IMG/VR virus record: IMGVR_UViG_3300044648_000181
Coordinates: 1 to 26,050 of that record
DNA: 26,050 nucleotides
Strand: one strand, 5' to 3'
Source: a virus
The notes beneath the pieces were generated by a model. It saw only the letters and a program-made list of their open reading frames with translations, had not been told where the DNA came from and ran no database searches. A program made the translations under genes and the position numbers. Shown piece after piece: positions 7,361 to 15,762 of the stretch (the first letter of the stretch is position 1; every line of letters starts with the position of its first letter).

Positions 7361-7639
7361 ATGGTTCAGTTTCTTATTCAGACATTCTTTCCGCCCAATC
7401 GCCTCTCAGATCGGGAAGCGTTGACGCTCGAAATCATTCGTCGGTTAGGACTAGCGAAACCGCTGGATATTCACCGCGAATTGCGAAAGGTGCAGGGAAG
7501 GGAGCCAGCCTTGGCTGCGATTTACACAGACCTTGACCGGCTGGAAAAGAAAGGCCGCATTTACTCCCACTTGGAGAAGGGCGGGCCGGAACGGTGCGGG
7601 CGACCGGTGCGGGTATGCTGGGCTGCGGAAAGGGAGTAA
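7361..7639 (+). CDS. PadR-like winged-helix transcriptional regulator
   Basis: 92 residues from an ATG with a strong AAGGAG site 5 bases upstream, the clearest ribosome binding site of this block. Residues about 20-85 match a winged helix. They have a helix-turn-helix with REPALAAIYTDLDRLEKKGR and a wing ending GGPERCGRPVRVCW, the same order as PadR regulators (IYTDLDRLEKKG then GR-P-x-Y). The dimerisation helix typical of longer PadR proteins is missing, so this is the short form. It likely regulates transcription of the nearby genes. Confidence 0.6.
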   Translation: MVQFLIQTFFPPNRLSDREALTLEIIRRLGLAKPLDIHRELRKVQGREPALAAIYTDLDRLEKKGRIYSHLEKGGPERCGRPVRVCWAAERE

Positions 7640-7644
7640 CCACG

Positions 7645-8277
7645 ATGCGAGAAAGCGGCTTGTCTTGGATTTGCGAGACTCTGAATGTCAAACTGCGCGC
7701 GTCTCGCGTCCTCCGGCTCCTGTGGGTGGATGGATACTCCACTCAGGCGGTAGCGGTAGAAATGGGGATGTCGCGGCCTGCCGTGGCAATGTGTTCCGGT
7801 CGGCACCTGCGGAAAGCGGAATTGCGGGCACGGGCCGCGCAAGAGGCGGAAACGCAGGTTTTGGAGTTGCAGGTCGCGGTCAAGAACCTTCAGCGCAAGG
7901 AGTCGAAGGGAGAAGCTGACGATCTGGACCGCTATCAAGTAGCGCGGCTGGAAGAGGCTTGCACCGTGGATGTCCGCCTGCTGGCGATGGAGGCCATTCT
8001 GTGGCGGCAGCACCTGTTAGATGACGCGCCGGTAGACCACGAAGCTGACCCTGACGCTTTGCCGCCCCCGTTGGGATTGGACAAACACGCCCGTGAGCTA
8101 CTTCGGTCGATGAAGGGGCCGCGTAAGAAGACCCCGCAGACGCCAGAGTATGACGCGAACGGGCGACGCGTGGGTGCACCTGCCGTTCTGGTGTCTGGCT
8201 ATGAAGCAGAGCAACTATGCCGACAAGTCAGCGCGCGGCACGGAATTACTTTCGAGATAGCGAATCCACCATTGTGA
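7645..8277 (+). CDS. Helix-turn-helix DNA-binding protein
   Basis: 210 residues from ATG at 7645, with GGGAG about 9 bases before; an upstream GTG at 7594 is in frame but overlaps the PadR-like gene. Residues about 20-55 contain an HTH (VDGYSTQAVAVEMGMSRPAV), followed by an Ala/Glu/Gln-rich coiled coil to about residue 100 and a Pro-rich C-terminal part. The HTH plus coiled coil resembles small terminase or transcription-factor folds, but a separate small terminase is present downstream, so a regulator is more likely. It ends just before the 620-bp region without a confident protein gene. Confidence 0.6.
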   Translation: MRESGLSWICETLNVKLRASRVLRLLWVDGYSTQAVAVEMGMSRPAVAMCSGRHLRKAELRARAAQEAETQVLELQVAVKNLQRKESKGEADDLDRYQVARLEEACTVDVRLLAMEAILWRQHLLDDAPVDHEADPDALPPPLGLDKHARELLRSMKGPRKKTPQTPEYDANGRRVGAPAVLVSGYEAEQLCRQVSARHGITFEIANPPL

Positions 8278-8280
8278 TGG

Positions 8281-8309
8281 TTGACACTACCTAAAAAAAG
8301 CGATAAGTT
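8281..8309 (+). promoter_or_regulatory. Candidate sigma-70-type promoter
   Basis: A perfect TTGACA (8281-8286), a 17-bp spacer containing an A7 run, and TAAGTT (8304-8309, 3 of 6 bases of the -10 consensus) lie just after the stop of the HTH gene and before the tRNA-like region. The spacing is ideal but the -10 is weak. It could transcribe the tRNA-like genes, or if read through, the downstream membrane-protein and lysis genes. Confidence 0.4.
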
Positions 8310-8319
8310 ACGGGTAACC

Positions 8320-8352
8320 GTGGCCCCCATTGTCTCTGGACGTAGGGGCCAC
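8320..8352 (+). repeat. Inverted repeat / hairpin, 8-bp stem
   Basis: GTGGCCCC (8320-8327) pairs exactly with GGGGCCAC (8345-8352) around a 17-base loop. It begins about 10 bases after the promoter candidate, so it could be a transcript leader hairpin or an operator. There is no T-run after it, so it is unlikely to be a terminator. Confidence 0.4.
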
Positions 8353-8445
8353 ACCGCATTTTCTGCCACCCGGAGCAGGCCGGTTCCCTGCATCGCGGAG
8401 TGTGAAGCGATGGGCGGTGGAGACTGAAGGTTTTGAGCGGAGCAA

Positions 8446-8515
8446 TTGCGCGTGTGGTGTATCGGTAGCAGCGCAGTCTACAGGGCTGTGGGCCGGTTCA
8501 ATTCCGGGCGCGCAA
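8446..8515 (+). tRNA. tRNA-like gene, noncanonical; apparent anticodon ACA
   Basis: An acceptor stem TTGCGCG (8446-8452) pairs with CGCGCAA (8509-8515). The T arm is CCGG-TTCAATT-CCGG (8493-8507). The D arm contains the usual ATCGGTA loop. GCAGT (8473-8477) pairs with GCTGT (8485-8489), with G.U at both ends, around CTACAGG; this gives U33 and anticodon ACA (Cys UGU), which is uncommon. Faults are a G.G mismatch in the D stem, a short variable loop, and one or two extra bases between acceptor and D stem. It may be a degenerate or divergent phage tRNA. No CCA is encoded. Confidence 0.45.
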
Positions 8516-8516
8516 C

Positions 8517-8620
8517 AGAGAGGTCGTCTAAGGGTAGGACGCTAGCCTGAGCGGGCTAGAAATGGGGTCCCGAAAGGGCGGTAGTGCGCTCACACTTCCG
8601 GTTCGAATCCCCCGCTCTCG
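8517..8620 (+). tRNA. tRNA-like sequence with disrupted T arm; apparent anticodon GAG
   Basis: Begins next to the first. The acceptor GAGAG (8518-8522) pairs with CTCTC (8615-8619). The D arm is GTCT/GGAC with loop AAGGGTA. The anticodon stem CTAGC/GCTAG (8542-8546, 8555-8559) encloses an 8-base loop reading T-GAG (Leu). The T loop TTCGAAT is followed by CCCCC (8609-8613), but the bases just before it (TCCGG) pair only at GG. A matching GGGG lies 33 bases earlier at 8564-8567. So it is either a class II tRNA with a damaged arm, a tRNA with a 33-base insertion, or a recombined pseudogene. Function uncertain. Confidence 0.35.
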
Positions 8621-8626
8621 ATTATC

Positions 8627-8663
8627 GGAAGGGCCGCGTAGTTCATCGCTACGCGGCCCTTCC
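8627..8663 (+). terminator. Strong 15-bp hairpin, probable terminator
   Basis: GGAAGGGCCGCGTAG (8627-8641) is the perfect reverse complement of 8649-8663, with a 7-base loop TTCATCG. The following sequence CTGTTTCTG is only moderately T-rich, so it is a weaker intrinsic terminator in sequence terms but a very stable hairpin. It ends the tRNA-like region. Confidence 0.6.
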
Positions 8664-8899
8664 CTGTTTCTGACCACCAACTAACTAACCAACCGCACGG
8701 ACGGGGGCAGTGCTACGAACACGACCCCCACCCGCCGAGCAATGGGGGCACTCGCGTGCAACCCCTGCTCTCACGAAGAAGTCTCGGACAAGGAGACGAC
8801 TCCGCATGAATCCATTGTGTTGGGACGCTGGTGCGTGAGAGTCCTGCGCCGAGGAATTCTCCGTTTCGCAGCAAACCCATCCTGACTGCTCAGGCCATT
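8664..8899 (+). other. Intergenic leader region with hairpin
   Basis: No confident protein gene here. It contains CTAACTAACCAACC-like short repeats (about 8682-8696). It also contains a hairpin-forming stretch at 8744-8765 (GGGG-GCAC-TCGC-GTGC-AA-CCCC), which precedes an AAGGAG site at 8790-8795. Together with the small ORF at 8806 it could be the 5' leader of the membrane-protein operon. I see no -10/-35 pair. Confidence 0.35.
8806..8838 (+). CDS. Possible 10-residue leader peptide
   Basis: ATG at 8806 follows AAGGAG (8790-8795) at a workable distance. It encodes MNPLCWDAGA before TGA. It is far too short for confidence, but it has the best ribosome binding site upstream of the membrane-protein gene and could couple translation of the next frame. 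Confidence 0.2.
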   Translation: MNPLCWDAGA

Positions 8900-9427
8900 A
8901 TGTTCGGCTGGAAGTTTTCTCTCCGGCGCAGCGCAGAGCGGTTGTGGCTAATCGTGCTTTTCGGGACCCCGGAAGTTGCCGGAGTCGGCAGCGGCCTGGC
9001 AGCATTGAGCATGGGCTTGCGCTACGCCTGGCCTGACCAGGTGTTCGACGTTAACCCGCGCTTCTTTCGCCCGATGAGCGACCTGGCTCCCGAATGGGCC
9101 TGGGCGATTCTGATGATTGCCGTGGGTACGGTGCAGATTTTCACGGTAGCGGACGGCAATCGCTCGGTGCGTCGGAGCGCAGCGATGGCGGGGGTTCTGC
9201 TCTGGGCTTTCCTGACCGTGATGTATGTCCGGGGAGATGTACGAGCCCCGGTGATCCCCCTGTTCCTGCTAGGAGTGGCGGCTAATGCTTGGAAGTATCT
9301 GCGCCTCTCCTCCTGGTGGAATGCGGAGTTTGAAGTCACGGCGGCACCTGATCCTGAAGGACGGGGACGCGAACTACACGACCGCCATGATCGCCCTGGC
9401 GACGGCGCTGTTCGTGAAGGGCCTTGA
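8900..9427 (+). CDS. Membrane protein, four predicted helices
   Basis: The frame is open from GTG at 8831; ATG at 8900 is placed before the hydrophobic part. From 8900 it has 175 residues and about four membrane segments: LWLIVLFGTPEVAGVGSGLA, WAWAILMIAVGTVQIFTVA, AMAGVLLWAFLTVMYV and VIPLFLLGVAANAWKYL. No family is recognised. It starts a series of small membrane proteins before the endolysin, so a lysis or holin-related role is possible. The last 48 codons overlap the next ORF, and their composition looks unlike the rest, so the true end or a frameshift needs checking. Confidence 0.55.
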   Translation: MFGWKFSLRRSAERLWLIVLFGTPEVAGVGSGLAALSMGLRYAWPDQVFDVNPRFFRPMSDLAPEWAWAILMIAVGTVQIFTVADGNRSVRRSAAMAGVLLWAFLTVMYVRGDVRAPVIPLFLLGVAANAWKYLRLSSWWNAEFEVTAAPDPEGRGRELHDRHDRPGDGAVREGP

Positions 9428-12311: not shown

Positions 12312-12836
12312 ATGAGCGCAACGCAGGAAAAGGCAATAAACCTTACCGTAAAACAGAGGGATTTCATCCGCTACTACCTGGGCCGCGCAAATGGTAACGC
12401 CACTGTGGCGGCGCGGTTGGCGGGCTATGGTTCACCCAAAGAGCGCGGGTGCGAACTCACCCACAATCCCACTGTGGCCGCTGAAATCAAGCGGGTGTTA
12501 GACGAGCGGGCGATGCCTGCTAACGACGTGCTAGCGCGTTTGGCTGACCAGGCCAGAGGCCCATCGATTTATCTCCGCGCTGCTGGCGAGCGAGTCTATA
12601 TTGACGCTGAGGGGATGCTGGAAGACGGGATGGGGCATCTCATCAAAGGGGTGAAGGAGACTGTCACCAAGGATGGCGACCGCATCCAGACAATTGAGTT
12701 TGCGGACTCGCAGGCGGCTCTTGTGCATCTAGGCCGACACCACAAGCTTTTTACCGACAAGGCGGAAGTGACCGGTGCGGACGGTGAGGCATTCACTGTG
12801 AAAGTCATCTCTGGCGTGAGCCTGGACGACCTGTAA
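12312..12836 (+). CDS. terS: Terminase small subunit
   Basis: Recognises the packaging site on phage DNA and loads the large subunit. 174 residues with the Terminase_2-type N-terminus: LTVKQRDFIRYYLGRANGNA, then an HTH-like ATVAARLAGYGSP, and HNPTVAAEIKRVLDERAMPA, followed by a conserved-looking middle. No good ribosome binding site precedes the ATG; the upstream 85-bp gap is rich in CCACCTCCC and GGGGCGGGG. The gene overlaps the large-subunit ATG in TAATG, consistent with stoichiometric coupling. Confidence 0.88.
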   Translation: MSATQEKAINLTVKQRDFIRYYLGRANGNATVAARLAGYGSPKERGCELTHNPTVAAEIKRVLDERAMPANDVLARLADQARGPSIYLRAAGERVYIDAEGMLEDGMGHLIKGVKETVTKDGDRIQTIEFADSQAALVHLGRHHKLFTDKAEVTGADGEAFTVKVISGVSLDDL

Positions 12837-14154: not shown

Positions 14155-15762
14155 ATGGCAGGCATTCTCACGAGTTTTAGCGAGGCGATCAAAGCCGCGT
14201 CGTTTGTCTACGGCAAGACACGTGGAGCCGCTTCCGGCTTCCCGTGGGGCTGGGGCCGCTTCGACAACCTGACGGACCCCTACCCGCGCTGGCAATACAA
14301 CGGCAAGCAGGGAGACGCGTTCGATGTGACGGCGAGCGCAGGCAACCCAGCGGATAACTCCGCCGTGGTCATCTGCCTGGGGAAGATCGCGAACGTCTTC
14401 CCAGAGCCGCGCCTGCAAGTGGTCGAACTCGACTCAGATGGCAACTGGCAGCCGGTAGAAGACCACCCGGCGCTAGACCTGCTCTCGGAACCGAACCAGC
14501 TAGACGACTTCGGCAGCCTCTCTATCGCGTGGGCGATGTCCTACAAGGTGGATGGGAACGCCTACTTCGTGCTGACCCGTACGCGGGGCGGCGAGATTGC
14601 CCAGATTGACTACGTGCGCCCCGACCAGATGCGGCCAGAGAGTAATTCGCCCACGGTGGCGATTCAACGCTACATCTACACCGTCGACGGGAAAGAAACC
14701 CCCTACGATCCCTCTGATGTCATTCACTGGCGGGATGGGAAGGACCCGAACGACCCTCGGCTGGGGCTAGGGCGGCTGAAGCGGCTCCTCGGCGAGATTG
14801 CCACGGACAACGAGGCAACCCGCTACACCACGGCTATTCTGCACAACATGGGCATCGTGGGTGGGATGTTGGTCTCTGATGATGCCGAGGCGATGCCTGC
14901 CGACAAGGAGCAGGTGGAGCGACTGCGGGCGCACTGGAAGCAGCAGACCACCGGCAGTAATCGAGGCGGGCTGATTATCCCGACGTGGAAGGCGAAGTAC
15001 CAGGACATCGGCAGATCACCGGAAGAGATGGCGCTGCGGGATATCCGTACCATCCCCGAGGCTCGGATCGCTGCTGTTTTAGACGTGCCTGCGATGGTGG
15101 CGGGGCTAACGGCAGGGTCGGAGTCGAAGTCCTACGCCAACTATGCCGAGGCGCGGGAGTCCTTCTGGGAAGAGTGCATCGTTCCGCTCCATACCCGGTT
15201 CTGCGCGGGCCTGACGCGCTATCTCTTGCCGCAATACGGCGACGAGATTCGGGGTAACCGCCGCCGCAGGTTCCGCTACTGCTATGACGAGGTCCGCGCC
15301 TTCCAGCCGGATATGGATAAGGTGAGTGGGAGGAAGACCAAGGAGTGGATGGCAGACGGGATTACGCTGAACGAGTACCGAGAGGCGGTGGGAGAGAAGG
15401 AGTGGGAAGAGGAAGCAGTAGGCAAACTCTTCTACAGCCAGCATACTTCCGCTATGAAGCCGAGCTTGCCTGATCCCGCCGCCCCGCCCGAATCCCAAGG
15501 CGATCTCGCCGCGACTGCTGACAACGCCGTGGGCAGAACGATGCCATTCGGCACGGAGAAGAAGGCGCTGGCGGGGCTGAACGGGCACGCAGCGAAGGCG
15601 GTGGAGTTCGAGGCGGATGGCGTGGAATACACGACCACCTCCGTCGATGTGATGAAGGTTGCCGCTGACGCGTTCGGTGACGACCTGGAAGACTTCTGGG
15701 CTAAAAGACGGGAGCGGTGGAGCGGGCTGCTGGAAGAGGGAGGCGGAGATGAAAGTCCTTGA
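14155..15762 (+). CDS. HK97-type portal protein
   Basis: Forms the dodecameric ring at one capsid vertex through which DNA passes and to which the tail attaches. 535 residues starting 5 bases after the large terminase. The core fits HK97-like portals: ADNSAVVICLGKIANVF near the start, HPALDLLSEPNQLDDFGSL, SYKVDGNAYFVLTRT, DPSDVIHWRDGKDPNDPRLG and EARIAAVLDVPAMVAGL. The last about 110 residues are polar and variable, as is common. It overlaps the next small gene by 14 bp. Confidence 0.9.
   Translation: MAGILTSFSEAIKAASFVYGKTRGAASGFPWGWGRFDNLTDPYPRWQYNGKQGDAFDVTASAGNPADNSAVVICLGKIANVFPEPRLQVVELDSDGNWQPVEDHPALDLLSEPNQLDDFGSLSIAWAMSYKVDGNAYFVLTRTRGGEIAQIDYVRPDQMRPESNSPTVAIQRYIYTVDGKETPYDPSDVIHWRDGKDPNDPRLGLGRLKRLLGEIATDNEATRYTTAILHNMGIVGGMLVSDDAEAMPADKEQVERLRAHWKQQTTGSNRGGLIIPTWKAKYQDIGRSPEEMALRDIRTIPEARIAAVLDVPAMVAGLTAGSESKSYANYAEARESFWEECIVPLHTRFCAGLTRYLLPQYGDEIRGNRRRRFRYCYDEVRAFQPDMDKVSGRKTKEWMADGITLNEYREAVGEKEWEEEAVGKLFYSQHTSAMKPSLPDPAAPPESQGDLAATADNAVGRTMPFGTEKKALAGLNGHAAKAVEFEADGVEYTTTSVDVMKVAADAFGDDLEDFWAKRRERWSGLLEEGGGDESP

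What the first reader, a model, noticed from the sequence alone, without database searches (positions are those of the whole stretch)
8446..8620. Two adjacent tRNA-like sequences with structural faults
Both have recognisable acceptor, D and anticodon arms. The first reads ACA, a rare anticodon. The second has a T-arm 5' side that does not pair; a GGGG that would pair lies 33 bases upstream. This could be decay, recombination at an att-like site, or a small insertion. The sequence CTA also sits in the first anticodon loop one reading-shift away, which would read UAG, but pairing favours ACA.
Basis: partly seen in the sequence, partly recalled or inferred. Interest (0 to 1): 0.6.

Follow-up and report, generated by a model that had tools for sequence, protein, structure and literature searches.

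The report
Two worn-out phage tRNA genes
A short non-coding gap in this phage genome holds two side-by-side sequences that clearly derive from transfer RNA genes but are badly damaged, one by a 33-base insertion; they are most likely decaying leftovers, which is ordinary for phages.

Summary
Two tRNA-derived sequences lie in tandem in a 553-base gap between protein genes, followed by a perfect 16-bp hairpin. Each keeps the sequence invariants of a tRNA, and shuffled windows almost never give either one. Neither scores as a normal tRNA: Rfam's tRNA model does not call them, and a tRNA model built here gives 19.4 and 9.1 bits.

Element 1 (ACA) has a fully paired 12-bp acceptor/T domain, best read as 8+4 bp. 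However, its D stem has 3 bp, its variable loop about 2-3 bases, and its cloverleaf lies 15.7 kcal/mol above a rod-like fold.

Element 2 is split by a 33-base insert. Joining its flanks gives a perfect 5-bp T stem and TTCGAAT loop.

No relative carries the pair. Of 45 contigs with related terminases, the few that have tRNAs carry different single ones, several also faulty.

Best reading: pseudogenes, element 2 through an insertion. Functional, spliced or regulatory readings are not excluded. Stop-codon recoding and an attachment site find no support. A separate family of array tRNAs with a conserved, covarying insert is reported in passing.

The parts
8446..8517 (+). tRNA-like element 1: acceptor 8446-8453/8508-8515 (8 bp), D loop ATCGGTA 8461-8467 with a 3-bp stem, anticodon loop CTACAGG 8478-8484 (ACA), T stem 8493-8496/8504-8507 with loop TTCAATT 8497-8503
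   Evidence: ARAGORN 107.9; own tRNA model 19.4 bits; pairing listed; cloverleaf -20.8 against minimum -36.5 kcal/mol
8517..8620 (+). tRNA-like element 2: acceptor 8518-8522/8615-8619 (5 bp), U8 at 8524, D arm 8526-8540, anticodon arm 8542-8559 with an 8-base loop CTGAGCGG, T-stem 5' side GGGG 8564-8567, T loop TTCGAAT 8602-8608, T-stem 3' side 8609-8613
   Evidence: composite motif search, own tRNA model 9.1 bits, pattern absent from shuffles, flank join
8568..8600 (+). 33-base insert splitting the T arm of element 2 (ends ambiguous by one G); can form CCC-GAAA-GGG and CGGTAGTG-CGCTCA-CACTTCCG hairpins
   Evidence: joined flanks give 5 of 5 T-stem pairs and ARAGORN 104.4; fold
8627..8663 (+). 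perfect 16-bp hairpin, terminator-like, directly after element 2; the T tract is weak (CTGTTTCTGA)
8278..8830 (+). 553-base gap between predicted genes (7594-8277 and 8831-9427) that holds both elements and the hairpin
   Evidence: ORF list; inference that the gap is non-coding

Best explanation
The locus is a two-gene phage tRNA cassette that has decayed. Both genes were once tRNAs, probably acquired separately. Element 1 has drifted until the cloverleaf is no longer its preferred fold. Element 2 was interrupted by a 33-base insertion at the T-stem/T-loop border and also gained an extra anticodon-loop base and two acceptor mismatches. Neither is likely to be aminoacylated and used in decoding now; the pair may still be transcribed up to the hairpin at 8627-8663. 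Shown here: tRNA ancestry, the listed faults, restoration of the T arm by the join, and absence from known relatives. Inferred: loss of function, the order of events, transcription.
For: Sequence invariants of tRNA remain in both (U8, A14, G18G19, A21, U33, TTCRANT) with significant composite matches. Rfam RF00005 does not call either at E<=0.001 in the record or up to E=1 in a whole-window scan; near element 1 the best clan match is tRNA-Sec, 20.9 bits against a cut-off of 47. Own model scores are 19.4 and 9.1 bits. Element 1's cloverleaf is 15.7 kcal/mol above its minimum, against 0-6.3 for 20 cellular tRNAs. Element 2's fold energy is no better than shuffles, z -0.30. Joining flanks restores a 5-bp T stem. 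Among relatives by terminase, tRNAs differ from phage to phage and several are also faulty, as expected for rapid gain and loss. The T-arm insert architecture was not seen in the 56 viral contigs matched by a dedicated pattern scan.
Against: No closely related phage with the locus was found, so decay cannot be told from a lineage-specific working RNA by comparison. The two sit in tandem on one strand before a strong hairpin, which looks like a kept transcription unit. The tRNA invariants survive in both, which long neutral decay would erode. Element 1 is unusually stable for its composition (z -3.86).
Confidence: 0.66

Rival explanations
1. The elements are transcribed non-decoding RNAs: tRNA mimics or decoys that occupy a host tRNA-binding protein, for example a tRNA-cutting defence nuclease, or that act as structured regulators. 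They need tRNA-like arms but not an intact cloverleaf.
For: Tandem position before a 16-bp hairpin; element 1 folds far more stably than shuffles, z -3.86; phage tRNAs are known to counter tRNA-targeting defences (PMC10264068, PMC11555353).
Against: The published cases are working tRNAs with altered anticodon loops, not broken cloverleafs; no conservation could be shown; element 2 is no more stable than shuffles.
Confidence: 0.13
2. Element 2 is an insert-bearing tRNA whose 33-base insert is removed or tolerated, giving a tRNA with an 8-base anticodon loop (four-base anticodon GAGC or frame-shifting GAG).
For: The join gives a near-complete tRNA, ARAGORN 104.4 with a (gagc) loop. An extra anticodon-loop base gives +1 frameshifting in SufB2 (PMC7803779).
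Against: Even the joined form lacks pairs 1-72 and 7-66. The anticodon stem can extend to 7 bp and close the loop. No splicing machinery for such inserts is known to me in bacteria. The architecture was not found in other viral contigs.
Confidence: 0.07
3. Element 1 is a working non-canonical tRNA of the 8/4 type (8-bp acceptor, 4-bp T stem), with element 2 a dead neighbour.
For: All 12 acceptor/T pairs form only in the 8/4 reading; best Rfam match is tRNA-Sec; irregular 8/4 tRNAs are described from soil metatranscriptomes (PMC7609411).
Against: No long variable arm, a 3-bp D stem, and a cloverleaf 15.7 kcal/mol above the minimum. ACA reads UGU, which is rare here (10 of 6027 codons).
Confidence: 0.07
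4. The site is an attachment (attP) site or other recombination scar carrying partial host tRNA sequence.
For: Temperate phages often carry the 3' half of a host tRNA (established knowledge); element 1's 3' half is its best-preserved part.
Against: Both 5' and 3' halves of both elements are present; no tyrosine recombinase in the record.
Confidence: 0.04

Closest known systems
Degenerate or pseudo tRNA genes in phage tRNA cassettes
   Same: Recognisable tRNA arms, low covariance scores, different from relative to relative
   Different: A clean 33-base insertion at the T-stem/T-loop border in element 2
Lak megaphage tRNAs with introns (PMC6784885)
   Same: A phage tRNA interrupted by an insert that need not destroy the flanking tRNA pairs
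   Different: Those introns are conserved across cohorts; here no conservation could be shown and other faults exist
8/4 allo-tRNAs and irregular metatranscriptomic tRNAs (PMC7609411)
   Same: Element 1 pairs as 8 bp plus 4 bp and has extra bases between acceptor and D stem
   Different: No long variable arm and no serine identity features recognised
SufB2-type +1 frameshifting tRNAs (PMC7803779)
   Same: Element 2 has an 8-base anticodon loop
   Different: Element 2 has a broken T arm and acceptor mismatches, and its loop can close into a 7-bp stem

Membership tests
Canonical bacterial tRNA | Score above Rfam RF00005 gathering threshold (29 bits) | tested here: not met
   No RF00005 match in the record at E<=0.001; in the window and sub-window scans no RF00005 match was listed, and element 1's best clan match is tRNA-Sec at 20.9 bits
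Canonical bacterial tRNA | 7-bp acceptor and 5-bp T stem | tested here: not met
   Element 1 pairs as 8/4; element 2 has 5 acceptor pairs and a split T stem
Canonical bacterial tRNA | 7-base anticodon loop with U33 | tested here: inconclusive
   Met by element 1 (CTACAGG); not met by element 2 (8 bases)
Canonical bacterial tRNA | Transcribed, processed and charged | not testable with these tools
   No RNA data available
8/4 allo-tRNA | 8-bp acceptor plus 4-bp T stem | tested here: met
   Element 1
8/4 allo-tRNA | Long variable arm (serine type) | tested here: not met
   Two to three bases between anticodon stem and T stem in element 1
Intron-bearing phage tRNA | Removing the insert gives an otherwise intact tRNA | tested here: inconclusive
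   T arm fully restored, but 1-72 and 7-66 mismatches and an 8-base loop remain
Intron-bearing phage tRNA | Insert conserved among related phages | tested here: inconclusive
   No relative carries the locus; the architecture was not seen in other viral contigs
Suppressor tRNA (UAG) | CUA in anticodon position and UAG read as sense in the genome | tested here: not met
   Pairing puts ACA at 34-36; TAG appears 6 times in 21 ORFs, at the level of ordinary stops
attP site | Integrase gene in the element | tested here: inconclusive
   No PF00589 match in the 26-kb record, but the record is a fragment; serine recombinases were not searched

The most novel reading that the evidence does not exclude
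Element 2 is a functional phage tRNA whose structured 33-base T-arm insert is excised or tolerated in a bacterium, yielding a natural tRNA with a four-base anticodon.
Probability: 0.05. Interest if true: 0.8.

Novelty: new member of a known kind. Interest (0 to 1): 0.27.

Why it matters
If the elements are pseudogenes, they are one more example of fast tRNA turnover in phages and of tRNA relics that standard callers half-see or miss. If the insert were removed, it would bring a new case of tRNA splicing in a bacterial virus and a natural four-base anticodon. The side finding, a covarying insert between D arm and anticodon arm in extra tRNAs of phage tRNA arrays, is a better testable lead on the open question of phage tRNA inserts.

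Tried and rejected
UAG recoding: rejected, since TAG is used at stop-like frequency and ACA is favoured by pairing. Type II tRNA with a long variable arm for element 2: rejected, because the bases next to the T loop pair at only 2 of 5 positions. Codon compensation by element 1: unlikely, since UGU is rare. Element 1 kin in L024 by blastn: rejected, because the hit lies inside what reads as a lysozyme-like coding sequence. Searches that found nothing: blastn of the gap against 50,697 phage records; neighbours 7594-8277 and 8831-9427 in viral contigs; exact 20-mer of element 2 in viral contigs. ARAGORN at relaxed thresholds on the relatives gave mostly chance calls and was not used. Mukai et al. 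2017 on novel cloverleafs is not held; its content is taken from the review PMC7609411.

Full report
What is there. The window is a 26,050-base virus record. Its gene content is that of a tailed phage: terminase small subunit at 12312, terminase large subunit at 12836, portal at 14155 and major head protein around 18.9-20.2 kb. The nearest named phages by terminase are only about 42% identical (Streptomyces phage Xkcd426). Between the predicted genes at 7594-8277 and 8831-9427 is a gap of 553 bases. It holds two tRNA-like sequences in tandem and then a perfect 16-bp hairpin at 8627-8663.

Element 1, 8446-8517. ARAGORN calls it as tRNA with anticodon ACA, score 107.9. Only one of 200 dinucleotide-shuffled windows gave any call, and that scored 100.4. 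A fully paired 12-bp acceptor/T domain with a consensus T loop occurs in the window at this place and about 0.003 times per shuffled window (those shuffles keep base composition only). All 12 pairs form if read as 8 bp of acceptor (8446-8453 with 8508-8515) and 4 bp of T stem; the standard 7/5 reading leaves a G-G mismatch. The D loop (ATCGGTA), the anticodon loop (CTACAGG, U33) and the T loop (TTCAATT) keep the tRNA invariants. The D stem has 3 pairs and the variable loop 2-3 bases. Rfam's tRNA model does not reach threshold. The best match is tRNA-Sec at 20.9 bits against a cut-off of 47. A model built here from 26 cellular and phage tRNAs (A2, R1) gives 19.4 bits, E 0.0011 for the window. 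The unmodified RNA prefers a rod-like hairpin: its cloverleaf is 15.7 kcal/mol above the minimum, against 0-6.3 for 20 cellular tRNAs treated the same way.

Element 2, 8517-8620. A strict search for U8, a 4-bp D stem with A14/GG/A21, and a 5-bp anticodon stem with U33 finds one place in the window and 3 in 200 shuffled plus strands. The stem can also extend to 7 bp and close the loop to GAGC. GGGG at 8564-8567 stands where a T stem should begin, but the T loop TTCGAAT begins only at 8602. The pattern D-arm end / GGGG / T loop with CCCC occurs in none of 100 shuffles. Joining the flanks around 33 bases (8568-8600, ambiguous by one G) gives GGGGG/CCCCC around TTCGAAT and lifts the element to an ARAGORN score of 104.4. 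Mismatches at 1-72 and 7-66 and the 8-base loop remain. The insert can form two hairpins, yet the whole element is no more stable than shuffles (z -0.30). The own model gives 9.1 bits.

Relatives. Terminase searches gave 45 viral loci and one contig of a Chlorobiota MAG. None has a homologous tRNA locus by blastn. Seven of 24 records searched hold tRNA matches at E<=0.1, and one of those seven is the MAG itself with its cellular tRNAs. The phage tRNAs are of different types and several are faulty: L001's has A33 and an A1-C72 mismatch, and L049's has two anticodon-stem mismatches. The collections may leave out records very near the window, as the tools state, so a close relative may exist unseen.

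How it most likely works. The simplest account is decay of a small tRNA cassette: acquisition, loss of selection, drift in element 1, and in element 2 a 33-base insertion plus further faults. Ancestry and faults are shown; loss of function is inferred. The tandem arrangement before a strong hairpin, and the surviving invariants, keep alive the reading that the transcript has a role as a tRNA mimic. Phage tRNAs that resist tRNA-cutting defences are published (PMC10264068, PMC11555353), but those are working tRNAs. Removal of the insert by splicing is possible in principle: Lak phages carry tRNAs with conserved introns (PMC6784885). No evidence here supports it, and the T-arm architecture was not seen again among 56 viral-contig matches to a dedicated pattern.

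What was excluded. UAG recoding is not supported: TAG occurs 6 times in 21 ORFs, at stop-like frequency. An attachment site is not supported by any tyrosine recombinase in the record, but the record is a fragment.

Side finding. A search of viral contigs with the D arm of element 2 turned up at least 16 loci (L084, L085, L089, L097, L098, L101, L105, L115, L117, L118, L123, L126, L128, L135, L138, L155). In them an Asp-like tRNA carries about 45 structured bases between the D arm and the anticodon arm; the seven loci scanned for other tRNAs hold it inside large tRNA arrays. Over nine distinct sequences 94.9% of cells pair, with 23 compensatory cells, including two covarying pairs inside the insert hairpin. 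Sliding the partners drops pairing to 35-53%. Most have encoded CCA, and several of these loci also carry normal Asp tRNAs. Rfam scores the L105 copy as a tRNA at 39.3 bits; ARAGORN does not call these copies. This is not homologous to the window's insert, which lies at another position with another sequence, but it is a stronger case of a kept insert in a phage tRNA.

Verdict. The finding itself is of modest interest.

Noticed in passing
L084:4994-5113(-), L089:8587-8704, L097:2267-2385, L098:2685-2807(-), L105:531-649, L117:130-247, L126:9747-9866(-), L128:9289-9409(-), L155:2842-2956: Family of extra Asp-like tRNAs in phage tRNA arrays with a conserved, covarying insert of about 45 bases between D arm and anticodon arm (hairpin then TTCAGCA/GTCAGCA). 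ARAGORN does not call them; covariation is.
   Followed up: partly
L087:1689-1810: Possible distant variant of the same kind: CGGGGTG/CGCCCCG acceptor, same D arm, a hairpin and TTCAGCA after the D arm, longer insert.
   Followed up: no
L001:3795-3866: tRNA called Asn(GTT) in the closest relative has A at position 33 and an A1-C72 mismatch; its cloverleaf is 10.4 kcal/mol above the minimum.
   Followed up: partly
L158:1570-1695 and L174:2925-3050: An Ala-like tRNA (GGC) followed directly by a second, separate T-arm-like hairpin GCGGGGTTCGAGTCCCCGC, as if a 3' tRNA piece had been duplicated.
   Followed up: no
L090, L116, L121, L091, L127: Phage tRNA-like sequences with the same D arm but shortened or closed anticodon arms.
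   Followed up: no
window 8627-8663: Perfect 16-bp G+C-rich hairpin with a 5-base loop directly after the tRNA-like pair and a weak T tract; terminator-like.
   Followed up: partly
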